Shown one piece after another: positions 2,305-55,096 of a stretch of 64,000 bases of DNA. Each line of letters begins with the position of its first letter. Within the stretch, counting starts at the first letter, position 1. The notes under the pieces are model-generated. The model saw only the letters and a program-made list of their open reading frames with translations. It did not search any database and was not told where the DNA came from. The stretch is taken from contig JAZBRS010000060.1 in NCBI GenBank assembly GCA_037176725.1, forward strand, positions 56,448,001-56,512,000, in the 5' to 3' direction. A program made the position numbers and the translations under genes. The DNA comes from Posidonia oceanica (Eukaryota; Streptophyta; Magnoliopsida; Alismatales; Posidoniaceae).

Positions 2305-2560
2305 TGTATGTGAAGGTGGTGAGGTATAGCAAGGAACAGTAAACTCTGCTGGAGAACTTGGTAAAGATTTTCCAGTTGAAACAGAACGAGTAGGTGTTGG
2401 ACCTGGAGCATTGGTACTTGGCGAAACTGGAGAGCGTGAAATAGAAGTATGATTATAGGGGGAAAGTGGAGATGCAAATGAAGCTCTTCTTTGAAAATGA
2501 GGAACAGAACCAGGAGATCTTGGTGATAATTTTCTTGGAGGTAGCATATTTATTCTTATC
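2305..2560 (-). CDS. CNNM/DUF21-CBS protein, exon coding the Ser/Pro-rich C-terminal tail
   Basis: The exon follows an acceptor TTTTTTCAG at 2561 and ends before a strong donor GTAAGT (plus strand 2299-2304). The first base completes the Lys codon of VHNK; the remaining 85 codons start IRINMLPPRKLSP and continue with many Ser, Pro and Thr residues, ending PSSPAEFTV then TSPPSHT. Such a tail after the CBS pair is typical of plant CBSDUF proteins and is probably cytosolic. If the donor is not used, translation reads two more codons (V, S) and stops at TGA (2296-2298). Homologous tails usually go on past this point, which favours one more exon to the left. Confidence 0.85.
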
Positions 2561-2630
2561 CTGAAAAAACAGAGGTCAGGTGGCAAATTACAGAAATTGC
2601 TGTGAGAAGAAACATCAGCTCACCACTTAC

Positions 2631-2677
2631 TTGTTATGAACATCAACATACTCATCTGTTTCATCCAAGATTTCTTC
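2631..2677 (-). CDS. CNNM/DUF21-CBS protein, 47-nt exon closing CBS2
   Basis: This tiny exon gives EEILDETDEYVDVHNK, the acidic end of the second CBS domain, directly continuing EELLQ of the previous exon. Acceptor CTTTAG lies at 2678-2683 and donor GTAAGT follows at 2625-2630. It has 15 full codons plus two bases, matching the one base at the start of the next exon. The intron to the next exon is only 70 bp. It is too short for ordinary ORF finding and was recognised from the conserved EEI-DETD motif. Confidence 0.9.
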
Positions 2678-3473
2678 CTAAAGACAACAAAAGAAGACAA
2701 GATTTACAATGTGCTTCATGTAGAATTTATACATACACAAGAAAATTGCCAATATATATGAATTATTTTAATTATTTATGAATTAACCTTTACATGAAAA
2801 AAGAGATAAATAATAATATCAATCAGCAATTTAAATTGACCGAAGATGATTAAGAAATGGATAAACCAACAAAAGGATATATGTTATGGAAACACATATA
2901 TAGCACTAAAAACCATGATGAACATAGAGCAAGCATGCATTCAGAGATTCAAGATTTCCAACCACAAGCAAGTCAAGAAATGTTCATTTTATTTTGACTG
3001 TAGGTGGTAAAGCTGGGCCTCAACTTGCAATGTTCTGCATGACCAGGCAAAGAGGAACAAGAGTTCTTTTGCAATCTAAATGTGAAATTTTTTATCAGTA
3101 ATCAAAATGTGAAAACTACAAGCAGGAAAAGATAAATACCACACATAAATCACGTTGCGTTGCTGAATCAAACCATTCTACTTGAAACAAATTATTCAAA
3201 AGCTTTATTCTGTGAACATTTTTTAAAATTTTTTTCTTCTGAAATTTACAGTGCTGAATAAATGCACATGCTTCATATAAACGTGAAATATTTTTTACAA
3301 GTGATAATAGAATTTTCCAAGAAATTTTGTAAAGCAAATAAAAAAATCACAAATAAGAGACTTTAGCATACAAATCATACATGGAGGGACATGTTTAAGA
3401 AGTTATATGAGGCATCATTCAAAGCTAATTAGTCTCAGTCGATACTTAGAAATAGTGTTCATTACTTAAAAAC

Positions 3474-3712
3474 CTGTAGCAATTCCTCCATAAGATCTTC
3501 CATTGTTATGATACCAACAGCTTCTTTATCTGATGGATAGCTTGGAAGTGAATCCAGATCATCAATTATATTTCCATGTCGTCCTCGCTCCCATTTCTTG
3601 AAAGGTGGGCGCATTCCTTGTTGATCCATATTTCTCAATGGACTGCGGCTTCCTGGGGCATTGGAATACACCAATGAAATGTTTGTCGTACTAGCAAGTT
3701 GATCAGCCAAAA
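3474..3712 (-). CDS. CNNM/DUF21-CBS protein, exon with the CBS2 linker and VGIITMED core
   Basis: The exon encodes a variable linker (from LADQLAST through PPFKKWERGRHG) and then KEAVGIITMEDLMEELLQ, the hallmark strand-helix of the second CBS domain in this family. The donor is GTTTTT after the CAG of the last Gln. The acceptor region reads AAGTAG, so splicing may occur at 3712 or 3715; both keep the frame and differ by one Val. The linker between the CBS2 halves is usually long and poorly conserved, as seen here. The preceding intron is 154 bp and the following one 796 bp. Confidence 0.9.
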
Positions 3713-3866
3713 CTACTTGAAACAACTCCATGAAATTATAAAATTTACCATATAGGATCCACGAAAAGAATGCTATGTCAAATTCTCACAATACTGTAGC
3801 CAGAAATCATAATATTCAACATAATTAATTTAAAAGAAATAACTAATATAAAAAGGGTACCAATAC

Positions 3867-4039
3867 CATCAGCTTGGGAATGTTTCCTGTTCTTATTGAT
3901 TCTACTCTCAACCATATTACTCATTCCTTTTACAAAGTTTGCTGGAAATTCGTTTGTGCTCTTCACAACAACAGCCATATGACTGTGACCTTTCTGAAAC
4001 TCATTTAGAATATCATAAAGTGGCATGTCATCACAAACC
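3867..4039 (-). CDS. CNNM/DUF21-CBS protein, exon with the start of CBS2
   Basis: The exon encodes RVCDDMPLYDILNEFQKG followed by HSHMAVVVKSTNEF and a basic linker ending KNRKHSQAD. MPLYDILNEFQKGHSHMA is the signature of the second CBS domain of plant CBSDUF proteins. Acceptor ACCAG ends at 4040; donor GTATTG follows 3867. Its first base completes the Arg codon begun in the exon at 21191-21264, which is 17.2 kb away, so this exon and the distant one fit in sequence and in phase. Confidence 0.92.
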
Positions 4040-4465
4040 CTGGTAAAAAATAATAGGGAAACATTGTAAGTGAGGAAACTACACAAGCTACAAGCATGCA
4101 GATTTTGCAGAAAATCATAAATTACCACTGTTGTCAAGACAAACACAATGACAGGATGAAATCGTCAAAAAATACTTGAAATATATTGACTTCCTTGATA
4201 GCAAATACTTCAAAGAGTTTAAGGCAGCCTAGGTGCCTCTTCGGATTAAGACATCATGGATTAATTAAAGTAAGTGTATGCCTTGGCTCGCTTGATCAAT
4301 TTATTTGATGTTAATTTTTTGTTTTGTGATTAGTCTCAGGATTTTTTTTTTCTTATTTTTGTATGTCTCAATGTTATTTAGTGTTAACATAGCATAAACT
4401 GGATAAATTAATGTGTAGATACTATATAGTTAATAGGAAAAAATCCCCATCTTTCTGGTCATATA
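4040..4465. other. Intronic AT-rich sequence next to the CBS2 exon
   Basis: Nothing coding is visible beyond the acceptor of the CBS2 exon. A GCC-rich word at 4219-4240 resembles the transposon ends discussed for the neighbouring element. Confidence 0.4.
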
Positions 4466-6125
4466 AGGCATCAAGGCACCCCCAACTTGTCGGCATGGCG
4501 CTTTGGCGCCACGATAAGTATGGTTTTAGTATGCTTGTTGGTATACATATCTGACAAGTATGTTAGTTGGCTCCCAACTTGAGAGCAGGGAATACCAGTT
4601 ACCATTTTCCATGAGCTTATCCTTAAAATTGCAACTTCAATATTAGTAATTGTGCTGATATTTGTGGGATAAGTAGGCAAAAAATGTGATATCATCCCTA
4701 ATAAAATTCCTAGATAACTTGTGTGCCAACTGCCAAAGCGGTGGAAGATGGATGGCTTGAAGGTTGGAAGATTGGAAGAGCCTTGGGTCAATGTTCTGGG
4801 ATGCTACCAAGAAACAGATTATTCGTCTTAAATTTCTGTTCAGACTGAGATGATTTCGGGGTTGAGAATTAATTTTTAGAAGATCTCAATTATGGAAACT
4901 CACATAGTCACGTGAGCACAAATGAGCTACTGGAATTTGCTATACACATGATCTACAAAGTGAAAGATCTTCCTATTAAATATCTTACTTCATCTGTGAG
5001 AAACCGCAGAAGACTGATTAGAGGTTTCTTTGTGATACAGTAGATGGGAAACGAAGGTTGTAAAACAAAATACTTAAGCTCTGTAGTAAGCATTCTCATC
5101 AAAAGTGTGCTTATAAGCAACCAAATTTTTCAAATGGGGGTGTTTGAGCTTCCTCTCGGTGTAATGGAACTGCTGGAAAAGAATATTAAATGTGCTTGTG
5201 GCAAGGCGGCCCACTACTTCAGACCCTTGTTCTTCTTCCTTAAACCCCACAATCTTTTCCTACCTCGTTGACGTCAATATCAAATATCAATTCCTTCCTT
5301 TTTTTCTTTCCTTTTTTTTTGTTTTTGCCTATGTGTTTAGACAATCTGCTTCTTTTCTCCCTGTACCTCCACTAAATCTGTTCTCTTGCCCACATGGCCC
5401 CTCTAAGGTGTTCCATTGATGATTTTGTCCCAAGCTGATTTTATTAAACTATCCGAAACCTCGTCGGATCTGGATGTGGATCCAACAAAGAACCACATAT
5501 TTTTAGACAAAAAATGGTTTCAGGCTTTCAGCTATCCAGACCAGGAAAACTGGCTGCTAACCTTATCTTCCCTCTCTTCCTCTGGCCATCTTCGGTCCTC
5601 CGACAGCCTTCATCTCCTCTGACAACCTCTTCCTCTTCCTCCTCCTCCAGCGGCTTTTCCAGCCATCTTTGTGGAGTTCTCCGATGAGTTCTTCGGCCAT
5701 CTCCAAGCTTCGTGTGACTTTTATATTTATGGTTTAACTTTAATGTCATTTAATTATTGTCTTTTACATATTGACAATGTTAATGGGTGTTTACTTAAGT
5801 TTAAAGTGGATATATTAATGCATAATTGTTGTTAGAGTAAATGGATCCTTATATGGATCTTTGTGTTATACATTTATTAGATTCCTTATAGATTAAGTAT
5901 GTGCTCTCTTATATATAGAAGATTGTAATCTTTTGTTATAATATAATATATGATTCTCTTTCTCCCTAACAATTGTATTTAACATTGAATTGTTTACTTA
6001 AGTTTAAGTGTACATATAAATATGAAAAAAATAATAATTTAACTAATTAATGGTGCCTAGGCGTCGCCTAGGCTACCCGGCGTCCAAGGTGCATGGGCTC
6101 AACGCCTCGGCGCCTTGGCACCTTA
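4466..6125. mobile_element. Possible hAT-type DNA element with AAGGCGCC-like ends (non-coding)
   Basis: The right end, read inward on the minus strand, is AAGGTGCCAAGGCGCCGAGG; the left end at 4467 begins AAGGCATCAAGGCACC. Such GCC-rich inverted ends with many CCTAGGCG words occur in plant non-autonomous hAT elements. A related end-like motif occurs at 4219 (TTAAGGCAGCCTAGGTGCC), so the left border is uncertain. I could not find a matching 8-bp target duplication. The interior has a pyrimidine-rich and GC-richer part at 5260-5720 and no clear transposase. Confidence 0.35.
5830..5971 (+). mobile_element. Solo Copia LTR, 142 bp, with perfect 5-bp target duplication
   Basis: The sequence runs from TGTTAGAGTAAATGG to CTCCCTAACA and is flanked on both sides by ATTGT (5825-5829 and 5972-5976). 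Length, TG..CA ends, a GGATCCTTATATGGATC core and a TATATA stretch match the short LTRs of the Copia elements elsewhere in the window. No internal region is present, so it is the product of LTR-LTR recombination. It lies inside the probable hAT-type element. Confidence 0.85.
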
Positions 6126-6619
6126 ATAACCTTTTTTTTTGTCCTATCAATGAGAACATGCTTCAGTTTCATCGTTAATCAGTTGTATCATACAAATTGC
6201 CAAAGCTTTTTATTCTATGTTAGTTTTCTTCTCTTTTTGTCTAAGTTCCTTCTAGGTGTACCAAATACAAGGGAGTTCATCTGGCAGTCAATTGACAGGA
6301 TTTGTGACAGCTGGTAAAATATGTAGGGTTGGGTATTAGGTCCATCAAAGTCTTCAACAAGGCACTTTTTACAAAGTGTCTTTGGAGATGGGAGACAAAA
6401 ATCCAGCATTACTTAAGGAACTTGTCAATAGTAAATATTATCATAATTGATGCGGCTCTAATGAGCCAATTGGGATCCGACAATTGATGAAAAGCCTCAC
6501 ACACAATTGTTGACTGCTAAGAGAGAGTAGAGGGTTAGAAGACCTCGGACTGAAGGGACTCTAGCTGGAGATGCTCCAATGCTCAAGTCAGGAAGTAAGG
6601 AATGTTAAATGGAAATTAA
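6126..6619. other. Non-coding stretch before Copia 1
   Basis: No coding motif, terminal repeat or RNA gene recognised. The short open frames here do not resemble any family I know. Confidence 0.4.
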
Positions 6620-6687
6620 GTGGGTAATAAATGCGTACCTGAAAATCCTTTTAAGTGTCCTCAGTTGGGTAATAAATGCGTACCTGA
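6620..6687 (+). repeat. Tandem duplication of 45 bp at the truncated start of Copia 1
   Basis: GGGTAATAAATGCGTACCTG occurs at 6622 and again at 6667. The second copy leads in frame into the zinc-knuckle remnant of Copia 1, so the first copy marks a rearranged border of that element. Confidence 0.75.
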
Positions 6688-7110
6688 CAAATGCTGAGAC
6701 AAGTTTCGAAAACCAGAGTGGGGCCAGACTGTCATGACAGACAGTTCCACTGGTGCTGGCACAATTGCAATTCCACAGGTTGAGTATGAGCATTTTCAGC
6801 AGTTTCAGGCCAGCCAGTCGTCTACCACAACTTCCCATGCCACTAGCTTAGGCACTGGTGCCTTCATAACTTTTAAGGACAGTTCCTAGATAATAGACTC
6901 AGGTGGCTTTTCACATATGACAGATACTCGTGATCAGTTTACCTCTTTTTCTTGCTAATCCTTTAGCCATTTTGTTTCTATTGCCAATGGTAGACTATGT
7001 TCTATTGATGGTCAAGGGGTTATTCAAGCCTCTTCGCAAGTCACCATTGACAAAGTTCTTTATATTTCTGATTTCTCAGTTAATTTTCTATCAATTAGCA
7101 TGATTACCAA
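6664..7110 (+). pseudogene. Copia 1 gag end and protease remnant
   Basis: A CGNKCVPDKC-stop-DKF string matches a retroviral-type zinc knuckle followed by the KFRKPEWGQ motif usual in this Copia group; the His of the knuckle is replaced by Cys. At 6883-6935 the string IIDSGGFSHMTDT is the protease active site (consensus IDSGASSHM), preceded by a stop in place of Trp. The peptide GQGVIQASSQVTIDKVLYI downstream is the protease flap region. Several stops make it a pseudogene. Confidence 0.8.
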
Positions 7111-7139
7111 AGCTTTAAACTGCTCAGTAACATTCTTTC

Positions 7140-8207
7140 CATATCATTGTACTTTTTCAGGGTCTACGGACGGAGAAGATGATTGGTTTAGACCGTGAAC
7201 GTGGTGGACTATATGTCCTTGTTTGAGATGATGTTCCCAAGGATCTTCTATCGCCCATCTCAAAGTCGTCTCCTCTATAGCACTATCACCTTGGTCATCC
7301 TTCTCTTTGCAAGCTTCAATAAGCATTGCCATGGGTGTCTATAGAGTCTTTTGATTGTAAGTGTTGTCAGTTGGGTAAGCATCATCGTACTACCTATCGT
7401 CATTCCAGTAATATTAGTCATGCTCCCTTTGAGCTAATTCATTGTGACATATGGGGTTTGTCTCGTGTGTCATTAGTGTCTGGTTATAGGTACTAAATTA
7501 TCTTTATTGATGATTTTTCTAGAATTTCCTGGGTGTATTTGTTGAAAGATAGGGCACATGTACCTAATGTTATCAAAAGATTCTTCACTGAAATAAAAAC
7601 CCAATTTTCTGCCTCTCCTTGATTGTTTCGTTCTGATAATACCTTGGAATTTGTTCAAAATGAGATTATCAATTTTTGTGCTTCTTTGGGAAAATTGCAT
7701 CAAACTACTTGTCCTCGTACCTCTCAATAAAATGACATTGCTGAAAGAAAACACAAACATATTCTTGATGTCACTCGTATAATTATGTTTCAAATGAATG
7801 TTCCCAAATATCTTTGGCTTCATGTTGTTCTTACAGCATCCTACCTTATTAATAAGATACCATCTGCTGCTCTTGTTGGAGCCATTCCTCTTAAGAGGTT
7901 GTGTCCTGATCGTCCCATGTTTCATTTACCTCCTAAGGTGTTTGGATGTATTTGTTTTATGTAGGATCTTTCCCCTAGTCTTGACAGGCTTTCACCTCGT
8001 TCCATCAAGTGTGTCTTTGTGGGGTACTTTAGGACTTAAAAGGGATATTGATGCTACAATCCCACTATTAGACGATATATCACATCTGCTGATATTACCT
8101 TCTTTGAATCCACACCCATTTTTGGGTCCCAAACTACAGGTCAAGGCCATGTTTCACTTCCCACACCTATTGTTAGTTCTACTATTGATGACACATTTGG
8201 TTCGTTA
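7140..8207 (+). pseudogene. Copia 1 integrase remnant
   Basis: The HHCC zinc domain (HYHLGHPS then CKCCQLGKHH) is followed by the catalytic core: Asp in IHCDIWG at about 7445, Asp in RSDNTLEFVQ at about 7632, and Glu in AERKHKHILDV at about 7745. Continuation NVPKYLW and KVFGCICF leads to the C-terminal region. At least four stops interrupt the frame. The catalytic positions themselves are still readable. Confidence 0.85.
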
Positions 8208-9220
8208 GTGGCTCCCACTTGTCCATTACAGGTTTACCGCCATCGCCCTCAGGAACAACCACCACTTCTGCCTACTGTCAAATCAACTTCCACGCCAGCA
8301 TATCCGCCTCCTTCTAACCTTGATGTTCCTATTGCTATTCGCAAAGCTAAACAATCTGTCATTAATTATCCTATTTCACTTTTTGTTTCTTATGATCGTC
8401 TTCACCCTATATACCGTCAGTTGGCCTTGTCTACTTCTTATAAGACTATTCCTAGGAACTACAAAGAGGCTATGCTTATTCCACATTGGAAAAATGCTAT
8501 GAACGAAGAGATACATGCAATAGTATTGCAAAGAACCTGAGAGTTGCGTGATTGTCCCTCTGGAGCTACCGTTGTTGGTTGTCGTTGGGTTTACATAATA
8601 AAATTCAAACCAGATGCTATAAAGATAGATACAAAGTACATCTAGTTGCAAAGGGAATCACACAGACGTTTGGTGTTGACTATGCTAAGACCTTCTCACC
8701 AATGACGAAGTTGAACTCTATTCGAGTGCTACTGTCCATTTCTACCAATCAAGCATGAGAGATATATCAACTTGATGTCAAAAATGTCTTTTTGCATAGT
8801 GACTTGATTGAACAGATTCTTATAGAGCAATCTCTAGGGTATGTTTTTCAGGGAGAGAGTACTGTCTTGTCATATAAAGAAGGCGATCTACGGTCTCAAG
8901 CAAAGTCCTCGAGTATGGTTTGAAAAATTCAGCAAAATTGTCATGAGAACTGGTTTTCAACGGTGTGTAGTGGATCACTTTGTGTTTGTTAGACGATGCA
9001 ACAGTGGTAGTGTGGTTATTGCAGTATATGTAGATGACATCCTTTTGACAAACAGTGACATAGCAAGAATCTCAGAGACCAAAGAGTATTTGCAAAAGCA
9101 CTCCGCCACCAAAGACATGGGTAGACCAAAATACTTTCTTAGGATAGAGTTTGCATATAACAAAGATAAAATGATCCTATCTCAGAGAAAGTATGCCCTC
9201 AATCTTCTCTAAAAGACTAG
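8208..9220 (+). pseudogene. Copia 1 reverse transcriptase remnant
   Basis: The region starts with the proline-rich linker (PLQVYRHRPQEQPPLLP) and IFVSYDRL-like motif, then the RVT_2 domain: WKNAMNEEIHA, GCRWVYIIKFKPD, VDYAKTFSPMTKLNSIRVLL, LKQSPRVWFEKF and the catalytic box YVDDILLT at 9028-9051. Stops and at least two frameshifts break it. The YVDD box is intact. Confidence 0.88.
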
Positions 9221-9985
9221 ACCCTTGGGTTAAGCCAGAAACTACTCTAGTAGATCAAAAACTAGACTTTTGGGATAGTACTTCAGAGCTATTTGAAGAT
9301 GTTGGACGATATAGAAGAATGATTGGGAAACTGATTAATTTGACAATGACGCATCTAGATATCTTGTATGCAATTGATCTTCAGAGCCAGTTCATGCATA
9401 AACCAAGAATTGTTCACTGAAAAGGAGCTCTTCGTATGTTGGCTTATGTTAAAGGTTCACCTGAGCAAAGGACTTCTATATCAGAAGTATGGGCACCTTC
9501 ATATTGAGGCCTACTCGAATTCTAGCTATGCAGATAATAAAGGAGATCGAAAGTCTACCTCGAGCTATTGTACTTACATTGGAGGAAATATTGTCATCTG
9601 GAGAAGAAAAAGTAGAATGTGGTGTCTAGATTAAGTGCAAAAGCTGAATATCGATCAATGACCCTCACTACTTGCGAGATGGAGTGGTTCAAGTCTCTAT
9701 TGATAAAGTTCGATTTTACTGTACAGCTACCTATGCTAATGCACTGTGACAATAAGCTACCATATTTATTGCAAACAATCCTACATTCCATGAGCAGAAC
9801 CCAGTATATTGAGGTGGACTGCTATTATGTGAAAAATATTGTGATGACAAGGACTATCTCTACTCTCTATACTCCATCTTTAGATCAACTTACAGACATT
9901 TTTACTAGGGGTTTAGCCTTGGGAGTTTTTAGATCACTTTGTAATAAACTGGGCATGTTAGATATATATGCTCCTAACTTGAAAG
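9221..9985 (+). pseudogene. Copia 1 RNase H remnant
   Basis: Motifs RYRRMIGKLINLT, SYADNKGDRKSTSSY, SRLSAKAEYRSM and the ending YIEVDCYYVKN, DQLTDIFTRGLALG, YAPNLKGS are the Copia RNase H and tail just before the polypurine tract and LTR. The first catalytic stretch is in a different frame from the rest, so it is broken. Confidence 0.85.
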
Positions 9986-9989
9986 GGAG

Positions 9990-10110
9990 TGTTACTGTTA
10001 GTAGATCCTTATATAGATCCTATATGGATATCCATCTATGTACTCATCTTTGAACTCCTATATATATAGGACTCTTCTAATTAATGGTAGATCTCTTTTT
10101 ACATTCAACA
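9990..10110 (+). repeat. Copia 1 3' LTR
   Basis: It starts TGTTACTGTTAGTAGATCC directly after the polypurine tract GAAAGGGAG and ends ATTCAACA. The core with repeated GATCC and a TATATATA box resembles the solo LTR at 5830. The 3' limit is taken from the TG..CA rule because there is no 5' partner. Confidence 0.65.
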
Positions 10111-10139
10111 ATCAGAAAGGGCAAAAAGGAAGATTGGAC

Positions 10140-10300
10140 AAGAAAACCAATGTTACCTTCTCATGGATCACAAAGTTCATTGGGTACTTTGGAGATTCAG
10201 AAATGGAATTGTCTTTGACAACAAACAGTGCTACCTAGAAGATCTTGAAGGATCTGCTAGAGGCTTCATCAAACGATGGGTGGACGCTTTCATAGCTTAG
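10140..10300 (+). mobile_element. LINE C-terminal tail fragment
   Basis: One frame reads VLWRFRNGIVFDNKQCY then LEDLEGSARGFIKRWVDAF and a stop. The LW-x-x-RN-x-IF pattern close to the end of ORF2 is typical of plant L1-type LINEs. It is short, without the rest of the element. The identification rests on this one motif. Confidence 0.5.
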
Positions 10301-10943
10301 CTTTTCTTAACTGGTTAATTTTTATTCTTTGTTAATCTTGGATATGTACCATAGCATCTTATTAATATTATGATTAATAAGAAGCATCCCATCCTTTCTT
10401 TAAAAAAAATCCTAGATAACATATTTCATCAACAATCCAAGGTATGGTCTTACCGTTTTTCTGATGCATTTAAGACACTTAGTGTATACGGTCAAACACT
10501 ACAACAAGAGAGTAGTTACAACAATTTAGGGTATTTTTTCAATTATTATTTGGTTACTTCTATGGGACGAGCACAGAGACACATACATAGCTTATCAATG
10601 TGACTTTTCAAAGGTTGATAGCTAACAACCTCAGTCTACCTGTGTGACACAAGACCCTTGATATCCCATATTCAAACCCAATCCCCTTTAGCTATCGACA
10701 ATAAAATTAAAGACAAGCACTCTCTTATAGCACACTTTTGAGCCTATACTCCACATAATATTTTAAATTTCACCATTAGGGAAAATATCTATTAGGATCC
10801 AAAAGGAAAATTGTAAAGCTTTAGTTGTTTTGTTTTCTGTTCATGGAAGACAAGGGCAAGCTTTTCTATTGTTTATCATAGGAAATTTTGTAACCTCCTT
10901 AAACCTCATTTTCCAAATTTACCTAGCATGGGCCTAGCTTTAC
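10301..10943. other. Non-coding intronic stretch
   Basis: AT-rich sequence with no recognisable coding domain or terminal repeat. It lies between the LINE tail and the LTR of Copia 2a. Confidence 0.5.
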
Positions 10944-11090
10944 TGTTAGAGTTATTAGTTGTTAGTATGTGGGTTAGTTGTATGTGATTATGTAGATATC
11001 CGTTTATGTTACATGGATACCCTAATCACTATACATGTGTGCTTAAACATTAGCAATAACACATCTCTTTATTTTTCCTTTCCTTTGATA
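10944..11090 (+). repeat. Copia 2a 5' LTR
   Basis: TGTTAGAGTTATTAGTTG at the start matches the minus-strand LTR at 12441-12304. The end is TCCTTTGATA, a decayed CA end, directly before the primer binding site TGGTACCAGAGC at 11091. Confidence 0.85.
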
Positions 11091-11102
11091 TGGTACCAGA
11101 GC
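11091..11102 (+). promoter_or_regulatory. Copia 2a primer binding site
   Basis: TGGTACCAGAGC directly follows the LTR and differs at one base from the complement of the initiator Met tRNA 3' end (TGGTATCAGAGC). This is where minus-strand cDNA synthesis would start. Confidence 0.8.
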
Positions 11103-11159
11103 TCTACATTACGTAACCCTAATAATAAAAAAACAACAAAAAAAACAGCAACACCCACA

Positions 11160-11340
11160 GCTGTCGGCCCTCCCTTCTCCACTCACAGCCACCGCCGGAC
11201 CTCTCTTCTCCACTTACAGTCACCGCCGGCCCTAGCAGCCACTGCCGGACCTCTCTTCTCCACCTACAGTCACCACCGGCCCTAGCAGCCACCGTCGGAC
11301 CTCTCTTCTCCACCCACAATCATCGCCGAACCCTCCCCCT
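11160..11340 (+). repeat. GC-rich minisatellite in the Copia 2a leader
   Basis: Units of about 55-60 bp share GGACCTCTCTTCTCCACC and CACCGCCGGCCCTAGCAGCC with small changes and repeat about three times. The long open frames on both strands here come from the biased composition and are not genes. Confidence 0.8.
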
Positions 11341-11685
11341 CCACCCGAGGCACCACCAGCCCCTCCTCTTTCCCCCGCAGCAGCCGCCTACCCCTCCTCT
11401 TCATCCCACAGCAACCGCTGGCCCACACAACAACCATCAGTGCCTCACTCTCCAGTTTCTCTCCCACACGCCGCCTCCTTCCCCCTCCACAGTTGCTGGC
11501 GGGTCCTCTCCCCTCCGGTGGCATGTGCAGCTGTTGCCGCCGGTGTGGGATGCTATTCTAGGTTGCATCCTCTCTACTACTCTTTGTGGAGTCCTGTTTT
11601 TTTTTTTTGCTCCATGATTGCTACTCTCTGTTGTTTTCCTTTGATTTGCTGAAACTCAGTCCTCTCTCTGCGTGCTACTGGATTT

Positions 11686-12303: not shown

Positions 12304-12441
12304 TGTCAAAGGAAAAGGAGCAAGGAGAAAGATAGTCTTATTGCTAACGTCCAATTACACATATATAGTGGTTAAGGTATCCATATAACAAAAATAGATA
12401 TTCACATAACCACATATTACTAACAACTAATAACTCTAACA
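12304..12441 (-). repeat. Copia 2b 3' LTR
   Basis: On the minus strand it reads TGTTAGAGTTATTAGTTG to CCTTTTCCTTTGACA, preceded by the polypurine tract CTTGAGAGGGAG. It is clearly homologous to the LTR at 10944. The left flank is GCTAC, the expected target duplication; the second copy is lost with the other end. Confidence 0.85.
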
Positions 12442-12448
12442 CTCCCTC

Positions 12449-13559: not shown

Positions 13560-13614
13560 CTCCCCTTGAGCAACATACTCAAGAGATTACTCCATATATA
13601 CTTCCTCAAGCAGA

Positions 13615-39888: not shown

Positions 39889-39922
<34 letters not shown>

Positions 39923-45803: not shown

Positions 45804-46367
45804 TGCCGTGGTCCCTGACCCCCACTAACACGTGGACATAAAGCATTCAATGGATCCCATAGGGCTTCACACTATGGCCTAGAATGAAGTGGCAGGCCCC
45901 ACCAGTCCATAGAGGTGGACCCTGCTTCCTCGACCTGCTTGGCCGTCGGGTATCTATTCCACATTCCCAATTGTATCAGCTGGCATCATGCAGGAGCTTG
46001 CCAGATGTGATGATCAAAAATATTCAAAGAGTAGATCCGTAACTAATGCCATGATTTTTGGGTAAATACGTAACGTCTCGTAATTGGACCACATCATAGA
46101 ACTCGTCAAATCCATGGAGCAATGTATAAATATGAGGTTACGACGTTACAAGGAGGTACGCTATTATTCATAATTTCACCTAGAACCTGATTTTCGCCTA
46201 ATTCTACCACCATCTGACTTAAGCGTTGGAAGGGTCCCAATCGAACAAACGGTGCCCTTCTGACTGCTACTTCCTCAATTCACAAGTCAGATGGGACATA
46301 CAGGGCACCCTCCAAGCGACGAGACGTATTAGGCATGCCAACTCAACCAATCTTTGGGGCAAGATCA
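45804..46367 (+). repeat. Gypsy 2 3' LTR
   Basis: Preceded by the purine-rich AAGTGGGGGCC tract, it starts TGCCGTGGTCCCTGACCCC and ends GGGGCAAGATCA. It is alignable over most of its length with 23425-24032 but with many substitutions and small deletions. Confidence 0.85.
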
Positions 46368-46372
46368 GGCCC

Positions 46373-47199
46373 ATTCAGGAACAAGAAAATAACTCTATGA
46401 GATGAAACTTTGATGGAGTCACTAGATCTTCCTCAGACAATCAGGGGCGGAGTTGAGCCAACTTTTGATTTCAGTTCTCATCTTTGTTTCTGCTATTTCT
46501 CGTGCGTCTCCTTGATATGCCCTTTTTATCTAAAAATTAAAAAAAAAATCTTCTTTTGATGCTTAAAATAAATATCATGGTTGTACAATGTCTTCAGTAC
46601 AATTTTCACTTACAAATTACATAATAATGAGTGCATTGTTTCAACTGCTTCAAGCTATAAAATTTTTATTACTTGATGCATGATGTTTATGTATTAATGA
46701 TTGCTTTTTTTATTGGTCTCTTGAGATCAGTAATTGTACCATCATCGATATTTTTAACCTATACATTAGTAATGAAGTGTTAAATTTTGTGTTACCATAA
46801 TCTGCAAATAGGCATCTAGAATTCTAGAAGACAAAAGCGGAAAAGCCCCTTGGAAGTTACCTCTTTTTTCATGTAATCATGTTTGAATTTTACTTGTGAA
46901 GTGTGTCAGATGATGTGATGGATCATGGAGTAATATATCCCAAAAGCTTAGGATTCCACTACTTTGGTAATTAAATGGTGGGGACTTGGAACACTCTTTG
47001 AGATACTAAAAATAATAATAAAGTCAGCCCAAAGGTCTTCTTTTTACAGCATAACACCATAACATCATTTTATATTTTTTACAGGAAAATAGTTTGGCAA
47101 ATTTACGATGTCGTATATTCCAACCATATGTGGATCTAGAAAAATTAAAGTAATTTTAACACATTGTCTAATAACACAAATTGCAAGGTTACTACCAGA
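46373..47199. other. AT-rich intron sequence between Gypsy 2 and the next LTR
   Basis: No coding motif, terminal repeat or RNA gene was found. It probably belongs to the original intron or to the element into which Gypsy 2 inserted. Confidence 0.45.
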
Positions 47200-48293
47200 C
47201 TTTGTGTAACGATCAAGATTTTTGACGGCATTTTAGGCTCTGGATTATTGGACGATGGGATGCATGCGTCTTATGTTGACACAAGAAATCCAACGTTCAA
47301 CACCTCGAAGATTGATTTCTGAAAATTGAGTGTGTTGGACGCTGGAGATTCTAACATCCAACGTTAGACACGTAGAAGGTTGTGTCCTACACCTAAACTG
47401 TTGATTTCTGGTCTACTTGGTGTTAGACGTAGATTATGGCACGTCTTATATTAGATGCAATAAACCTCGCGTCCAACACCTGTGGTTTGGCTTTCTGGAT
47501 ATCTAGGTGTTAGACGCTAATAAACCTACGTTTAACACTTGTGAACTCATTATTAGACGCGTACATGCATGTGTCTTATGATAGACGCATGACAGCACAT
47601 GTATAACGTCCTGAGTTTGCATCTGGAAGTTTCTACCACCTATTTATACCCATGCATGGCAGTGGCTTCCAAGGGAATGATTTCTCTTCTCTCTCTCCTC
47701 CTTCCCTAGGCTAGCGTGGTGGTTCTGGTGGTTCCAGGGTGCTTCATGAGAGTTTGGAGAGAGAGAAAGGTAAGGTTTGGTTCTTGAGTCCAAGCTTTCC
47801 TCTTCTTCTCTTCTTTTCTTGGTTGCAAGCATTAACCCTGAGTTTTGGTGTGTTGCATGAGCTATTGTAGGTACGGTGGAGGCCAGGGGATGCTTGAGGC
47901 ATGACCGGAAGCACACAGTGGAAGCTCTCTGTGTTGGGTGTCACTTGGCGCAAGGTATACACCCATTTAGAAGTTGACTAGAATGTTTAGTGGTTAAGAT
48001 TTTGATGCATGCTAGTGTTTATGGTGCCCTGCTATTCTTAGTTGATGGTTGCATGATTTGTCAGGTGGGCATGCATGACCTGGAGGGGGTTTTAACTCAG
48101 TTGGTGCTGTCAAGGTGTAGGACGTTGGGGCTGGCGTGTCCTATGTAAGACGCACAGCATTCCACATCTTACGCCCCTGCCAGAGTTTATGCATGTTATG
48201 ATGAAATAAATGATAGGATTGGGAAGGTTTCTTTGCATGCAGTAGAAGCTATGATTTGCCCTTTTATTTATTTATGATTCCATTATTAATAGT

Positions 48294-48424
48294 GTTGAGC
48301 TTATTAAAGTATAATGTATTGGGTAGTGTAATAGGGTAATTGGATATCTATTTATATCCAATCCTATATATATGTAACATGTTGACCTAATAACAATATA
48401 CACATTATTCTCTCTCACTTCACA
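48294..48424 (+). repeat. Copia 3 5' LTR
   Basis: TGTTGAGCTTATTAAAG to CTCACTTCACA, 131 bp, followed at 48425 by the primer site TGGTGCCAGAGC. It contains a TATATATATG core as likely promoter. Confidence 0.93.
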
Positions 48425-48436
48425 TGGTGCCAGAGC
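48425..48436 (+). promoter_or_regulatory. Copia 3 primer binding site
   Basis: TGGTGCCAGAGC has two changes from the Met-tRNA complement TGGTATCAGAGC and follows the LTR directly. Confidence 0.75.
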
Positions 48437-48529
48437 TTAGGAAAAAAATCCTAGGATTTCCTCAACCGCCGACCAGTTCTTTCAGCACTTTCGGCACTGA
48501 CCAAACACTCCAGTCACTCTCCCACCGCC

Positions 48530-48740
48530 ATTAGAGTCTCCAGCTTCCTCCTCCAACGCCAACAGGGCCTTCAGCCCTCTCCTCCGCCTCTGACAGGGCC
48601 AGCAGGCCCTTCCTCCGGCACCGACAGGGCCTTTAACCCTCTCCTCCGCCTCCGACAGAGCCAGCAAGCCCTTCCTCCGGCATCGACAGGGTCAGAAGGA
48701 CCCTCCTCCGCCGCCGGCACGGCCTATCGGCCCCTCCTCT
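48530..48740 (+). repeat. GC-rich minisatellite in the Copia 3 leader
   Basis: Words CTCCTCCGCCTCYGACAG, CCAGCARGCCCTTCCTCCGG and GACAGGGCCTT recur in alternating order, a higher-order unit of roughly 110 bp made of two related halves. It yields artificial open frames on the minus strand. Confidence 0.75.
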
Positions 48741-49059
48741 GCTGTCGGCCACCCCTGCAGGGTCTTTCGATGGTCTCAGACAGCTCTTAGGGTCTGTTCA
48801 GCAGCCCTTTTAGGGTTGCTCTCTTCTCTAGCCTCTACCGACGTGTAGACGACCCCTACTACTACTACCGACAATCAAACCAGTAGCTACTGCTACGGAA
48901 CAACTCATGAAAAGGACTATGTACGCTCTCTTCTACTACTACTAAAGTGGTTCTTGTTGTCCACTAGGTTATTATCTTCTAAAGGCTTCTAGATTATTTT
49001 TGCAGTAGATTTGGGGGTATTTTTTGCACCGATTTGCATCTAGACAGCAGTATTCAGAT

Positions 49060-50034
49060 CTGATTTGTTGTAAGCACAAAATTTTGAGACATTCCTTGCT
49101 GCTCGCCGCAAGATCAAACATCTTACTCAACCTCCTCCTGATGCAAAAGACAGTGTATATGAAGATTGGTTTGCCGATGACTCGACTATTGTTTCCTAGA
49201 TGGTAAACAGTATAGAACTGACGGTTGCTTGAGGGATGATGATTCTACGACTTGTGAAGAAAATCTAGGATATCTTGAAGCAGATGCATGGATATGAGAA
49301 GAACATTCCTCAAGTCTTTAAGGTATACGAGCAGATTTTCACACTGAAAATGGGAGACAGTTCAGTGTAGAACCATTTCACTTCGCTTCGGACTCTTCTT
49401 GATGAGCTTGATCTATATCAATCATTGACTAATATTGCTACGATGCATCGATATCGTGAGGAGCTTGCAGTTGCAGCCTATCTGTTCTTGGTGCAGACTC
49501 TACTCCTAATCTTGAGAGCACGTTTACTCGGGTTCTCCGCATCTCCACCAGTACACCCACGTCTACATTAGATCACTCTGCAATAGCTACTACTCGTGAT
49601 CGTGGCTGCAGTTCTAGTCGCGATTCCGATCGAGGAGGAGGTCATGGACAGAGATGGCAGAGACCGTACTCCATGTAAGCATTGTGGTCACACTAACCAC
49701 ATATCAGATCGTTGCTGGAAAAAGTTTGGGAAACCATATTGGACACAAGTCTCCACAGAGACATAGAATACACCTGCAGCTGTTCCTACTACTAATGCGC
49801 CGTCAATGACACTTTCTCAGGATAAATACGCTCAGTTCCTTCAGTTTAAAAAGAGCGAGTCTTCTACTACTATGACGTCATGTGCCACTTCCTCCACCTC
49901 AGGTATCTGGTTTATTCGCCTCTAGAGACAATTCTTGGATTATAAATTCAAGAGCATTCTCCCACATGATCAATAGTCATGATCTTTATTCCTATATATC
50001 CCAATTGCCAAATATTAGATCAGTCTATTGCAAG
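49060..50034 (+). pseudogene. Copia 3 gag and protease start
   Basis: VYEDWFADDSTIVS, EKNIPQVFKVYEQIF and LRTLLDELDLYQSL are gag motifs. CKHCGHTNHISDRCWKKFGK at about 49675 is an intact CX2CX4HX4C zinc knuckle. The protease site reads WIINSRAFSHMINSHDLY (49935-49990) where WIIDSGASSHM is usual, so the catalytic Asp is Asn. Element C has inserted right after it. Several stops are present. Confidence 0.85.
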
Positions 50035-50938
50035 CATGGTACCTAACATCGATGCGTGTCGACGACATTTCGCCGACACATGTCGGTATTGTAAAACGCA
50101 GAAACGACATTAAGTAATAAATCGTCAAATGCTGGATTTCGGTGGTAATTTCGATCTCGAGTCGAGCATGTCGACCGTGTCGACCGACACGTCAAGTTTT
50201 TACAACGCAAGAATCACGTGTCAGCCGATATGTTCATTTTTAGTACCGACATGGGCGAAGTTTCAGTCATAGGGTTTTTTTTTTTTTTTGTGTTTTGATG
50301 TTAATAACTTGATATTACATAAATCTAACCTAATAATACATATATCTAACCTAATAGAACATAGATCTAACCTAATAATTCTATAAAATCTATAAAATTA
50401 GTAAAATCAGGATACTCATATAATCGTGTACCGTTTTGGGACAGAGGCGATGCCCCCACCACCCCCACAAGGGGGGCGCACGTGCTCCCCCCTAAACCCC
50501 CCGAACTCTGTAAAGTGGCAACTTCTGCAGTAATCCTCAATCAAATTCCACATCTCCAACACTTAAGTATTCTTTCAAATTTATTTTCTCTCCATAATAA
50601 ATGTTGTGAGAACTATTCATTTTAAGTATATACTAATTATTTTTAAATATGATTTATACATTTATTAAGTATTTTTAGGTACTATTTATGCTTTAGGATA
50701 TTTGTATTAAATTTATGTAGTGTATTTTCATGTGATACATGTTTAGAAAATTTGATCTAAGTAGTCTTAAATGTAGATTATTGCTTACTTTAACTTAGCC
50801 TAGAGTTTCAAATCAAAATTCAAATTTTTTTTTCATGAACTTTCGTAAGTTTACCGCGTTTCCACCGACATTTCCACCGACACGTTTCCTATTTTTTTCG
50901 GACCGAAGTCCGACACGAAATCGACGTTTAGAACCTTG
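50035..50938. mobile_element. hAT-like element C (CAAGGTTC family), 904 bp
   Basis: Left end CATGGTACCTAACATCG, right end ACGTTTAGAACCTTG. Flanks ATTGCAAG (50027-50034) and ATTGCAAA (50939-50946) are an 8-bp duplication with one transition; removing the element restores the Copia 3 frame. The 3' 300 bp match element A. It has clusters of GTCGAC and CGACACG words at the left end and a C/G-rich patch at 50450-50510. No transposase is visible. Confidence 0.88.
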
Positions 50939-52140
50939 ATTGCAAATGGCAGGACTTGTCGTGTTTCTGGACAAGACACTATTCGTGCTGTCTCAGTCAA
51001 CATTAGATAAAGTACTTTATGTTCTCAAATTTCCAGTTAACCTATTATCTATTAGTTCCATTACCAAACAACTCAATTGCTATGTAACCTTTTTCCCTTT
51101 CACTGTACCTTTCAGAACCTACAGACCGGGAAAAGGATTGATTTGAGACATGAGAAAGGCAAAAGAGTCTACCTGCTTGTCAAAGATGAGTTACCTCAAG
51201 GTTTTGCATCATTGGCCTCTACAGTAGAACTGTCACTATATGGCATCGTCGGTTGGGTCATCCTTCTCATCAAAAGTTGCAGCAGGTACTTCCATGGATA
51301 TCTGTTTCCTCTTTTTAATGTGAGTCTTGTGAGTTAGGTAAGCACCATCGTCCTACTTTTCGTAGTCTTCGTCTGGTTCACAGTAAAAGTCCTTTTGAGT
51401 TAATTCATTGTGATGTATGAAGTCCAGCCAGAACACCTTTCGTGTCTGAATATAGATGTTATATTGTGTTTATTGATGATTTCTCTCGTGTGTCATGGGT
51501 CTATTCATTGAAAGATAGAATCAGTGATCTTGATACTATAAAAAAAAAATTATGAAAATAATAAATCAATATTCTGTTTGCCTCAAAGTTCTTCGTACAG
51601 ATAATGCTTTGGAATTTACTCAAATGATCCTTCGAAGTTATTGTGAATATCTGAGAGTTATACACCAAACCTCTTACCCATATACATCTCAACAGAATAG
51701 TATCGTCGAACATAAACATCGACATATTCTTGATGTCGCTTGATCCATTATGCTTGAGATGCATGTTCCCAAGTACCTGTGGTCTAATGCAGTTCTTACA
51801 GCTTCCTATCTTATCAATCGTATGCCGTCTACCCTACTTGAGGAGGAGATTCCACTTCGACGGTTAAGTCCTGATGTAGATATTTTTCCTCTTACTCCAC
51901 AGGTGTTTGGTTGTGTGGCCTTTGTTCAGAATTTGACACCGAACCTGGATAAACTAGCTCTAAGGTCTATTCGTTGTGTGTTCCTTGGATATTCTCGTAC
52001 TCAGCGAGACTATCGGTGTTATATCCCTACTACTAGAAAATACATTATTTCTGCTGATGTTACATTTTTAGAGAACAGCGTTTCTTTGATAGTGTGGCTT
52101 CTTTGTCTCAAAGTATTCTTTTACCCTTCATTGTAGAGTC
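50939..52140 (+). pseudogene. Copia 3 protease end and integrase
   Basis: VLKFPVNLLSISSITKQLNC is the protease end. The integrase shows CELCK-like zinc residues near 51320, IHCDV (first Asp) near 51405, RTDNALEFTQ (second Asp) at 51597, and the IVEHKHRHILDVA motif (Glu position) at 51707. From 51750 VPKYLWSNAVLTASYLINRM and QVFGCVAFVQN follow in a frame open for 128 codons. Stops occur before it. Confidence 0.88.
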
Positions 52141-53925
52141 TGGTGATAGTAATGCTAATGACACTATTACTACAGAAAAAGAGGTATCTAATCCTTTGCA
52201 GGTATACCGTCGACGACCACGCCCCTCTCCAGCCATTTCTTCTTCACCTTCTGCAAATCTGCCACCTACAAACCTACATTTGCCAATTGTCACTCGAAAA
52301 GGTACATGTACTTCCACTGCACATCTCATTTCCATTTTTGTTAGCTATGATAGACTTCACCCTACTTTCCGTACTTTTGCATTGTTCATTGCTTATGAGT
52401 CACTTCCCAGGAATTACCAAAAGACTCTCTTACTACCACAATAGAAGGCAACTATGAATGAAGAGATGCAGACTTTAGTATCTCAAGGAACATGGAATTT
52501 GGTTCCTAGACCGGCAGGAACTAATATTGTCACTTGCTGATGGGTGTTTGCTATTAAATACAAACCAGATAGTATGGTAGACAGGTACAAAGCACGTATG
52601 GTAGCACGTGGCTTCACACAAGAGTATGACGTTGACTACTATGAGACATTCTCTCCTGTAACCAGACTGAATTCTATAAGAGTCATCCTCTCCATTGCAG
52701 TGAACTAGTCTTGGGAGCTCAGTCAGCTGGATACGAAGAATGCTTTCCTGTATGGCGATCTTGCAAAGCAAGTGTATATGGAGCAACTCCCTGGGTATGT
52801 TGCTCAGGGGAAGAATCGGGTTTATTTCCTTAGGAAAGCGATTTATGGCCTTAAACAAAGTCCACGTGCTTGGTTTGAGAAGTTGTTACTTGTGGTTTTC
52901 GATGCTATGTTGTAGACCACTCTATTTTCTATAGATGGACGGATAGCGGCTGTGTAATATTGGTCGTGTATATGAATGATATTCTGTTGACTGGTAGTGA
53001 TATTGCAGGCATCCAGAGGACAAAGGATCATTTATAAAAATATTTTGTCACAAAGGACATGGGTAGACCTAAGTATTTCTTGGATATTGAATTTGCTTAT
53101 ACTAGAGACAGGATAGCATTGTCTCAAAGGAAATATGCATTGAATCTTCTACAGGAAACAAGTCTCTTAAGGTGTAAACCACAGACCACTCCATTTGATC
53201 AGAGTTTAGACTTCTAGGATAGTTCGTCACCTCTTTTAGAGGATGCTGGCAGATACAGGCGGCTGATTGGGAAGTTGATCTATCTGATTGTCACATGCCC
53301 AGATATTGCATATATTGTTGGTGTTCTCAGTCAGTTTATGCAAAAATCAATAACAGTACATTGATTGGAAGTCTTACGAGTGTTATCTTATATTAAGAAG
53401 GCTCCTAGTAAAGGACTTGTTTATAAAAAGAATGATCATCTGCGTATTGAAGCTTACTCAGACTCTGGCTATAGAGGAGATAGAGGAGATCGAAAGTCTA
53501 CTACTGGATATTGCACCTATGTTGGGAGAAATTTGGTTACATGACGCAGTAAAAAGCAGAATGTTGTCTCTAGATCCAATGCTGAATCTGAGTATTGATC
53601 TATGGCTCAGACTGCTTGTGAGATGATGTGGCTTCGCTCTTTCTTGATTGACTTAGATCTTTCTGTTGATGTGCCCATGTCTATGTATTGTAACAATCAT
53701 GCTGCTATCTACATTTCCAACAATCCAACCTTCTATAAGCGCACTAGGCATATAAAGATGGATTGTCATTATATTCAAGATATGGTGATGCAAGAGATTA
53801 TCTCTACTCCGTAGAGAAAGTCTTCTTACCGGTTTGCAGACATCTTTACTAAGGAACTTAGTGTTGGGACTTATAAATCTCTTCGCACCAAGCTGGACAT
53901 GATAGATATATATGCTCCAGCTTAA
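52141..53925 (+). pseudogene. Copia 3 reverse transcriptase and RNase H
   Basis: RT motifs: PLQVYRRRPRPSPAIS, FVSYDRLHPTF, ATMNEEMQTLVSQGTWNLVP, DRYKARMVARGFTQEYDV, LSQLDTKNAFLYGDL and the catalytic box changed from YVDD to YMND at about 52970. RNase H motifs: [46 protein letters not shown], and YCNNHAAIYISNNPTFYKRT. About ten stops or frame changes are present. Confidence 0.9.
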
Positions 53926-53932
53926 GGAGGAG

Positions 53933-54066
53933 TATTGAGCTTATTAGAGTATAGTGTATTAGATAGTGTAATAAGGTAATTAGATATCCGTTTATATCCT
54001 ATCCTCTATATATATGTAACATGTTGACCTAATAGCAATATATACATTATTCTCTCTCACTTCACA
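53933..54066 (+). repeat. Copia 3 3' LTR
   Basis: Begins TATTGAGCTTATTAGAG (TG changed to TA) after YAPA-stop and GGAGGAG purine tract; ends CTCACTTCACA next to AATAG. Confidence 0.92.
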
Positions 54067-54313
54067 AATAGTATGCACGTATGTATGTTGAGATGGTTTT
54101 TAGTTAGGAGCAGTTTTCTTGCTAGTGGACATAGGAAAAAGTCACACTGCCACACATCAAAGATTCTGGGTAAGTGAGTTATTTAGATTTATTTCAGTTA
54201 ATTCAGTTATTTATTTCTGTTGATAATTCTTAGATTTCGAATTAGTGTAATTGTTAAAAAAATAAAAATGTAACTAGGATTGAGAGGTAACGGTTGAGGG
54301 TCGTTACACTTTA

Positions 54314-54794
54314 GATAATAATAATACACATTTGTAGATAAGTAACCTCAAGTGCCTCAAAACTTTTTTAAAACTGAAATGTACTGATCAGTAGAATATA
54401 TATTCGTTTCGTCCATCCATGAGCCGTCATGTTTTGTTTTAGTAATTCATGCACAGTGTCTTATGTTAAAGTAACTTTCTTCCCTCTTCATCTAGATTCC
54501 TTCAAAGTCTTATGCATTTTTCCCTGGACAATGGTAAGTTATCTTTCATGTCAACTTGTCTTTCAACTTAAGATTTGAAACTAGATATCGATTCTTAGAA
54601 ACACAATGTCAAGTTGGCAATAACTTATCTGATTTTTTATATAAGGGAATCCACTAAGCTAATCTCATAACGACGGAAACTCAGAATGAGGGTTCATGAT
54701 TATGATTATGAGTTTGACACACCAATCTTCTACATAGTTTAGTGAGCTCACATCATCAGAAACTGTCAACAATTCTATAAGAGATTGTGCTCAC
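54314..54794. other. Original-looking intron sequence before the exon pair
   Basis: AT-rich, no coding motif or terminal repeat seen. It contains the intron start (donor GTGAGC on the minus strand at 54789-54794). Confidence 0.5.
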
Positions 54795-54882
54795 CAAAAT
54801 AAGGCCAATGATATTTGTTGGGGCTCCAGAATAGATAGGTACCCGACTGTGCCCCTTGGACATTATTAAACCCATTGTATTC
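54795..54882 (-). CDS. CNNM/DUF21-CBS protein, 88-nt exon inside CBS1
   Basis: Acceptor TTGCAG and donor GTGAGC bracket an exon whose first base completes Met of LDM; the next 29 codons read NTMGLIMSKGHSRVPIYSG then APTNIIGLIL. GHSR-P-Y is the signature of the first CBS domain in CNNM-type proteins. It joins the exon at 54957 across a 74-bp intron and the one at 21264 across 33.5 kb, in phase 0. Confidence 0.94.
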
Positions 54883-54956
54883 CTGCAAGAGATATCGGTA
54901 GATAATGCCAATGTATAAAGAAAACATCATGCAGCAAACACTAATAAGAGACGTAC

Positions 54957-55096
54957 ATGTCCAGTTTGGAATTTATATCGAGAGAAAATGTTTCGGATAT
55001 TGTCGTCATAGCATCTTTAGCAGTCTTCTGTGTTAAATCTAGTGCTCCAGAAATAATAGTTGTTTCATCATGTGTTAGTTCACCACCCTTCCCTGC
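54957..55096 (-). CDS. CNNM/DUF21-CBS protein, 140-nt exon with DUF21 end and CBS1 start
   Basis: Acceptor TTTTCTTAG and donor GTACGT bracket 46 codons plus two bases: [20 protein letters not shown], then [20 protein letters not shown] and [23 protein letters not shown] is nearly invariant in plant CBSDUF proteins and ends the acidic-helix region after the membrane domain. The family usually has AMTPIS; here it is AMTTIS. Upstream exons coding the four-helix DUF21 membrane part are expected beyond the right edge of the window. Confidence 0.94.

What the first reader, a model, noticed from the sequence alone, without database searches (positions are those of the whole stretch)
2305..55096. A CNNM/DUF21-CBS gene hidden across 53 kb of transposons
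Seven minus-strand exons, none long enough to stand out by itself, join in perfect phase into about 339 residues of a CNNM/CorC-type (plant CBSDUF, MGR) protein: [65 protein letters not shown] and EEILDETDEYVDVH. All introns are GT-AG. Seen directly: motifs, phases, splice sites. Known: family order of these motifs. Inferred: that the gene is expressed. Repeat-masked annotation would probably split it into fragments or lose it.
Basis: partly seen in the sequence, partly recalled or inferred. Interest (0 to 1): 0.93.

Follow-up and report, generated by a model that had tools for sequence, protein, structure and literature searches.

The report
Plant magnesium-transporter gene with giant introns
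This looks like an intact, ordinary plant gene for a CNNM-type magnesium transporter whose exons are spread over about 79,000 bases because some of its introns are very long and hold old transposons, as is common in large plant genomes; in one relative the catalogued protein covers only the first part of the gene.

Summary
The gene goes on 17.6 kb past the window: four more exons carry most of DUF21 and the ATG, giving 11 coding exons, 521 codons without a stop, 79,342 bp of which 77,779 are intron. Date palm's protein finds all 11 exons; its reversal finds none. It is a plant CNNM/MGR protein (Pfam CNNM 7.4e-34; top five relatives 72-75% identical). The genome search found no second copy, and three paralogous loci each have a gap over 17 kb. 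Two Anthurium genomes average about 9 kb per intron (PMC12871434), so the architecture is ordinary and 0.93 is far too high. The forecast about annotation is met in one case: taro's deposited relative stops exactly at the exon 7/8 junction. A by-product may be more interesting: 36 of 120 listed short relatives, and 20 of the 22 printed as 'isoform', end at that junction, suggesting a recurrent short isoform ending in intron 7. Expression was not testable.

The parts
55097..64000 (-). in-window part of intron 4 (19,750 bp in all, to 74846 in continued numbering); Copia-like stretches by similarity to those of intron 7, and a weak integrase-core match below its cut-off at 63515-63952. Exons E1-E4 lie beyond the window at 81640-81386, 81297-81214, 80825-80712 and 74933-74847
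54957..55096 (-). E5: [11 protein letters not shown]..., end of DUF21 and start of the CBS region
54795..54882 (-). E6: GHSRVPIYSG
21265..54794 (-). intron 6, 33,530 bp, the largest; holds an LTR-like pair and retroelement fragments
51744..52133 (+). retroviral polymerase SH3-like fragment (Copia-like by similarity to 14287-14730)
35985..42537 (+). LTR-like repeat 2, interrupted by about 2.85 kb (38618-41469); K2P distance to repeat 1 of 0.136 (2,526 sites) and 0.163 (1,065 sites)
29932..33611 (+). LTR-like repeat 1, followed by TTGGTATCAGAG, like a plant primer-binding site (recalled)
27404..28332 (+). integrase zinc-binding fragment (27946-28332) and an RNase H match below its cut-off (27404-27808)
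21191..21264 (-). E7: VKNLLT...VTIRKIPR; reading on into intron 7 gives a stop at once (AGG TAA)
4040..21190 (-). intron 7, 17,151 bp, with Copia and Ty3/gypsy fragments
18154..18474 (+). Tf2-type SH3 and chromodomain fragment
16107..17114 (+). Ty3/gypsy-type reverse transcriptase and RNase H fragment
12657..14214 (-). Copia-type reverse transcriptase fragments (RVT_2)
3867..4039 (-). E8: MPLYDILNEFQKGHSHM
3474..3712 (-). E9: variable loop and VGIITMEDLMEELLQ; an alternative in-frame acceptor 3 bases upstream is possible
2631..2677 (-). E10: EEILDETDEYVDVHNK
2296..2560 (-). E11: Ser/Pro-rich tail, TGA at 2298-2296; a strong donor-like GTAAGT overlaps the last codons from 2304

Best explanation
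An intact nuclear plant gene, with no second copy found, for an MGR (plant CNNM/CorC) magnesium transporter, probably of clade II. Shown: 11 coding exons, GT-AG introns, 521 open codons, DUF21 and CBS regions. Inferred: retroelements and other repeats lengthened introns 4, 6 and 7 (intron 3 was not examined) without touching the exons; RNA polymerase transcribes about 79 kb and the spliceosome removes 77.8 kb to give a 1.6-kb coding mRNA. As in rice and Arabidopsis, crossing such introns may need IBM2-type factors and U1 snRNP protection against early polyadenylation. The protein would move Mg2+ out of the cytosol at the plasma membrane, as rice OsMGR2 does.
For: Gene model and open frame. Date-palm protein against controls. 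Pfam CNNM 117.4 bits and CBS 31.9 bits, both over their cut-offs. Top five relatives 72-75% identical over 97-100%. CNNM4 structures match residues 12-312, E 3.2e-62. E113, I114 and P116 match the pi-helix residues called invariant in PMC8242095. Borders of seven exon matches of the C29 paralogue fall at about the same residues as this gene's introns. E1-E7 are 78-90% identical to 20 of 20 plant proteins compared, 84-97% exon by exon to taro. End branch 0.12 and 0.15 against medians of 0.14 and 0.18. Wheat subgroup III MGR genes have 11 exons (PMC12651028; that this gene belongs to that subgroup was not tested). Intron repeats. OsMGR2: PMC13123918. IBM2 and U1: PMC7145194, PMC11489095.
Against: No RNA evidence could be consulted, so splicing over the 17-34 kb introns is inferred. 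E8-E11 are only 50-69% identical to the 19 proteins that have them. The tail VSRKSYEKL... seen in many but not all relatives is missing; motif searches over 32 kb downstream found no exon for it. The lysine after the pi-helix proline, called highly conserved in PMC8242095, is Q117 here, as in CNNM4. No DNA of a close relative was at hand, so dN/dS was not measured. The Mg2+ role and the IBM2/U1 steps come from other species.
Confidence: 0.93

Rival explanations
1. A decaying pseudogene: the giant introns can no longer be crossed and only the exons still look intact.
For: No expression data; four introns of 5.8-33.5 kb; the C-terminal tail of many relatives is not found. In Chloranthus, expression declines once intron length exceeds 40 kb, although genes with long introns otherwise have higher expression than those with short ones (PMC8626473).
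Against: 521 codons without a stop against 28.6 expected after shuffling; all ten introns keep GT-AG; E1-E7 78-90% identical to 20 other plant proteins and E10 80-100% to the 19 that have it; the LTR-like pair in intron 6 has diverged by K2P 0.14-0.16 while the exons stayed open; no second copy found.
Confidence: 0.04
2. The gene is intact but makes chiefly a short product: transcripts end in intron 7 after E7 and encode only DUF21 and the first part of the CBS region. (Not exclusive of the best explanation.)
For: Taro's deposited relative ends there with no extra residue, and read-through of intron 7 here stops at the same residue. 36 of 120 listed short relatives, 20 of the 22 printed as 'isoform', end there (names). 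24 of the 31 anchor-bearing entries that do not continue into E8 fit read-through of a phase-2 GT intron.
Against: E8-E11 are open, and E10 is highly conserved, so the long form should be made. 7 of the 31 tails do not fit read-through. The search admitted only 99-315 residues, so ends at E8/E9 could not appear. Gene models are no proof of RNA or protein; one of the no-tail entries (P0192) is labelled partial.
Confidence: 0.08

Closest known systems
Plant MGR (MAGNESIUM RELEASE) / CBSDUF proteins, clade II; rice OsMGR2, Arabidopsis MGR4-7
   Same: DUF21 membrane domain, CBS region, motif order, about 520 residues; 11 coding exons, as in wheat subgroup III
   Different: 79-kb gene span; a tail of up to about 15 residues seen in many relatives is absent. 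Which MGR it is orthologous to was not settled by a tree with Arabidopsis or rice MGRs.
Animal CNNM2/CNNM4 and bacterial or archaeal CorB/CorC
   Same: DUF21 plus CBS architecture; E-I-x-P pi-helix motif kept
   Different: About 90 residues between the two matched stretches of the CBS region (residues 312-402) and a Ser/Pro-rich tail
Long-intron plant genes with intronic heterochromatin (rice OsIBM2 targets, Chloranthus genes over 20 kb)
   Same: Conserved short exons separated by long introns that hold LTR-type sequence
   Different: No methylation, H3K9me2 or RNA data here to show heterochromatin or dependence on IBM2

Membership tests
CNNM/MGR (DUF21-CBS) transporters | DUF21/CNNM transmembrane domain over the curated cut-off | tested here: met
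   PF01595 117.4 bits against a cut-off of 28.4, residues 18-189
CNNM/MGR (DUF21-CBS) transporters | Cytosolic CBS pair | tested here: met
   PF00571 31.9 bits against 24 for the whole protein, although no single stretch passes E 0.001 alone. The second half, residues 402-442, aligns to CNNM4 as a separate weak stretch (20.1 bits) and is conserved among the plant relatives
CNNM/MGR (DUF21-CBS) transporters | Pi-helical turn with invariant E, I and P in TM3 | tested here: met
   G112-E113-I114-I115-P116 aligned with CNNM4 GEILP; description from PMC8242095 passages. The following conserved lysine is Q117 here
Plant MGR clade II | Orthology to MGR4-7 | tested here: inconclusive
   Relatives carry the names At2g14520, At5g52790 and At1g47330; MGR5 is AT5G52790 and belongs to clade II; no tree with the Arabidopsis MGRs was built
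Plant MGR clade II | Plasma-membrane Mg2+ efflux | not testable with these tools
   Reported for OsMGR2 (PMC13123918)
Genes with heterochromatic introns under IBM2 control | Long introns holding transposable elements | tested here: met
   Retroelement domains in 10 of the 30 ORFs scanned, some below cut-off, and an LTR-like pair, in introns 4, 6 and 7; the share of intron that is transposon was not measured
Genes with heterochromatic introns under IBM2 control | H3K9me2 / non-CG methylation and IBM2-dependent 3' exon expression | not testable with these tools
   No epigenome or RNA data

The most novel reading that the evidence does not exclude
Plant MGR genes carry a conserved switch at intron 7: transcripts that end or are retained there make a short protein (DUF21 and the first part of the CBS region, no second half), and in large genomes the same intron has filled with transposons, so that the balance between regulated full-length transporter and short form depends on how well the polymerase crosses that intron (IBM2/U1-type control). 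Genome catalogues would then list only the short form, as in taro.
Probability: 0.2. Interest if true: 0.5.

Novelty: new member of a known kind. Interest (0 to 1): 0.2.

Why it matters
As a gene it is one more plant magnesium transporter, in a species for which the searches listed no near-identical protein. Its use is as a worked example: an exon chain can be recovered by homology through 17-34 kb introns, and the deposited taro relative lost its distal part at one of the same introns. The recurrent stop at exon 7/8 in models from conifer, magnoliid, monocot and eudicot, if it reflects real RNA, would be a testable regulatory feature of plant Mg2+ transport.

Tried and rejected
Nested host genes in the introns: 30 ORFs were scanned with Pfam (10 each; 28 are of the 72 stop-to-stop frames of 100 aa or more in the window, and 2 of L006/L007). 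10 of 30 gave retroelement domains, 20 gave nothing; the other 44 frames were not scanned. tRNA and Rfam (gathering threshold) scans of the window were empty. A missing 3' exon was sought by tail motifs to 12 kb and 32 kb downstream; none found. Species: the first tree (this gene and 43 chosen of the 120 listed relatives) puts it with two unnamed contig proteins and Spirodela, weakly (83/31, 90/60; innermost pair 99/96); the second, with taro added (24 rows), leaves it unresolved among monocots. 'Probably an alismatid monocot' is only a lead. Target-site duplication of the LTR-like pair: not clear by eye. Structure prediction was not run: the spliced protein is not readable from the DNA letter for letter, and the family is settled by sequence. 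No dN/dS, for lack of a relative's DNA. Copy number of intron repeats: one probe of three was answered (30600-31000: 186 candidates, 40 scored). The seagrass paper PMC7615686 (passages) only mentions that introns of 20 kb or more were analysed.
Full report
What is there. The window lies at 56,448,001-56,512,000 of contig C59 of a 2.963-Gb assembly in 80 contigs. A Pfam CNNM search of the genome placed a DUF21 exon 17 kb beyond the right end. Fetching that DNA gave four more exons, E1-E4, at 81640-81386, 81297-81214, 80825-80712 and 74933-74847 in continued window numbering, with an ATG in E1. Joined, E1-E11 give 1,563 bases, 521 codons, no stop, followed by TGA. The gene spans 79,342 bp; its ten introns measure 88, 388, 5,778, 19,750, 74, 33,530, 17,151, 154, 796 and 70 bp, total 77,779.

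Is it more than chance? The date-palm homologue gives one match per exon, 11 in all, on the minus strand, E 1.1e-4 to 3e-35; at the same threshold (E <= 1) its reversal finds nothing and three shuffles find three hits in all, none below E 0.26. The joined frame has 0 stops where the other frames have 28 and 29 and shuffled exons average 28.6.

What it encodes. Pfam: CNNM domain 117.4 bits (cut-off 28.4) and CBS 31.9 bits (cut-off 24). 3,698 proteins at E <= 0.001 among 7,993 scored candidates; the 120 listed begin with monocot proteins, mostly named DUF21 domain-containing protein, at 72-75% identity. CNNM4 structures match residues 12-312 at E 3.2e-62 and, weakly, 402-442. The pi-helix residues that PMC8242095 (passages) calls invariant are E113, I114 and P116 here; the lysine it calls highly conserved is Q117, as in CNNM4. 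Family function comes from papers: Arabidopsis clade II MGRs (MGR4-7) contribute to root-to-shoot Mg translocation (PMC12018779, passages); rice OsMGR2 is a plasma-membrane, proton-coupled Mg efflux transporter (PMC13123918, passages). Wheat subgroup III MGR genes all have 11 exons (PMC12651028, passages). Orthology to one particular MGR was not tested.

Conservation is uneven. Against 20 plant proteins E1-E7 are 78-90% identical; against the 19 that reach further, E8-E11 are 50-69%, with the 15 residues of E10 at 80-100%. Relatives often end in VSRKSYEKL...; rice, water lily and Dendrobium rows lack some or all of that tail, and so does this gene.

Copies. The protein search of the own genome gave 31 matches from 52 scored candidates. 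The near-identical ones are this gene's exons; E7 as DNA matches once. Three other loci match along most of the protein: C29 near 20.98-21.00 Mb, C22 near 69.84-69.86 Mb, C56 near 81.22-81.25 Mb. Each has one long gap between neighbouring exon matches: about 18.4, 17.1 and 28.6 kb. Fragments lie on C60, C19 (two places) and C56. Seven exon-match borders of the C29 locus fall at about the same residues as here, but it has roughly 0.1 kb between the E6 and E7 matches where the window gene has 33.5 kb. I infer that long introns arose gene by gene.

Intron content. Pfam finds Copia-type reverse transcriptase (12657-14214 minus), Ty3/gypsy-type RT/RNase H (16107-17114 plus), chromodomain/Tf2 SH3 (18154-18474 plus), integrase zinc-binding (27946-28332 plus), retroviral SH3 pieces (14287-14730 minus, 51744-52133 plus), and matches below their cut-offs at 15726-16103, 27404-27808 and 63515-63952. 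Intron 6 holds a long direct-repeat pair with a primer-binding-site-like start after the first copy; K2P 0.136 and 0.163. At a recalled grass rate of 1.3e-8 per site per year this is roughly 5-6 million years. A 401-base probe of it scored 40 matches: itself, the second copy (82%), and 38 others at 67-82% (lower bound, 186 candidates). The self-comparison showed no more similar pair of 200 bases or more (rows printed up to 78000). So the elements recognised are decayed; intron 3 and the total repeat share were not examined.

Is the architecture unusual? No. In Chloranthus spicatus 876 of 2,184 orthologues exceed 20 kb, against 2 in rice and 0 in Arabidopsis (PMC8626473, passages). In two Anthurium species (3.84 and 4.15 Gb, Araceae) the average intron is 8.9-9.5 kb (PMC12871434, passages); this gene averages 7.8 kb. 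[quoted passage not shown] Over 10% of rice genes have heterochromatic introns, with OsIBM2 needed at dozens of loci (PMC7145194, passages).

The annotation forecast. Searching with E1-E4 alone returned, at the top of 817 matches (120 listed), the taro protein Taro_012974: 291 aa, 90% identical. It contains E1-E7, nine extra residues exactly at E6/E7, and ends exactly at E7/E8. Those are the two largest introns lying wholly in the window. A second taro protein, Taro_014990, leaves the alignment at E6/E7. The search with E5-E11 listed no row named as taro among its 120 of 2,875 matches; this is weak evidence, since the list is cut and many rows have no name. Taro is 2.45 Gb, 82% repeats, scaffold N50 317 kb (PMC7407455, passages). 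Whether the assembly or the intron caused the break cannot be seen from here.

A by-product. Among the 120 short relatives listed, 36 end within 3 residues of the E7/E8 junction, against 9 at E6/E7, 13 at E5/E6, 11 at E4/E5, 12 at E3/E4, 1 at E2/E3 and 38 elsewhere. Of the 22 whose printed name contains 'isoform', 20 end there (my count from the names, which are cut at about 100 characters, and the ends). They belong to several MGR paralogues, not only to this gene. By a stricter anchor, 35 of 120 hold the E7 end; 4 go on into E8; of the other 31, 8 have no tail and 16 a tail starting with a residue that a TNN codon can give, which is what reading into a phase-2 GT intron requires; 7 do not fit (such residues make up 31% of these proteins). 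By eye, two of the misfits look like E8 in another frame, that is, alternative splicing. In the window gene the read-through is AGG TAA and stops at the same residue as taro's protein; C29 also stops at once, and C22 and C56 after a few residues, so ending in intron 7 always looks like this. The search admitted only 99-315 residues, so this is a lead. Two paper searches showed no title or abstract start on such an isoform; only listings were seen there, apart from PMC11489095, whose passages on U1 protection against intronic polyadenylation in Arabidopsis were read.

Verdict. Observation confirmed; gene identity confirmed and the gene completed; importance overstated.

Noticed in passing
21191 (E7/E8 junction) and proteins P0154-P0273: A large share of short plant MGR proteins stop at the exon 7/8 junction (36 of 120 listed; 20 of 22 printed as isoforms), mostly as if read into intron 7.
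   Followed up: partly
C60:78184771-78185141, C19:211742533-211743042, C19:206592564-206592659, C56:1811488-1811583: Fragments resembling exons of the C29 paralogue lie elsewhere in the genome without the rest of the gene; perhaps partial duplicates.
   Followed up: no
L008, about 90545-93981 in continued window numbering: Stretch upstream of the gene whose frames read as repeats of the type PVDKSETYHFSFAFPVDESETHPFRS; looks like a tandem array.
   Followed up: no
29224-29899 and 42600-42911: Related 96-97-base tandem repeats flank the LTR-like pair of intron 6 on both sides.
   Followed up: no
E1, 81386-81640 in continued window numbering: First exon is 66% GC while the others are 32-49%, a steep fall such as is common in monocots (recalled).
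   Followed up: no
C29, C22 and C56 paralogues, near residue 60: The three paralogous loci show a break between matches near residue 60, as if an intron lay there, where the window gene has none.
   Followed up: no
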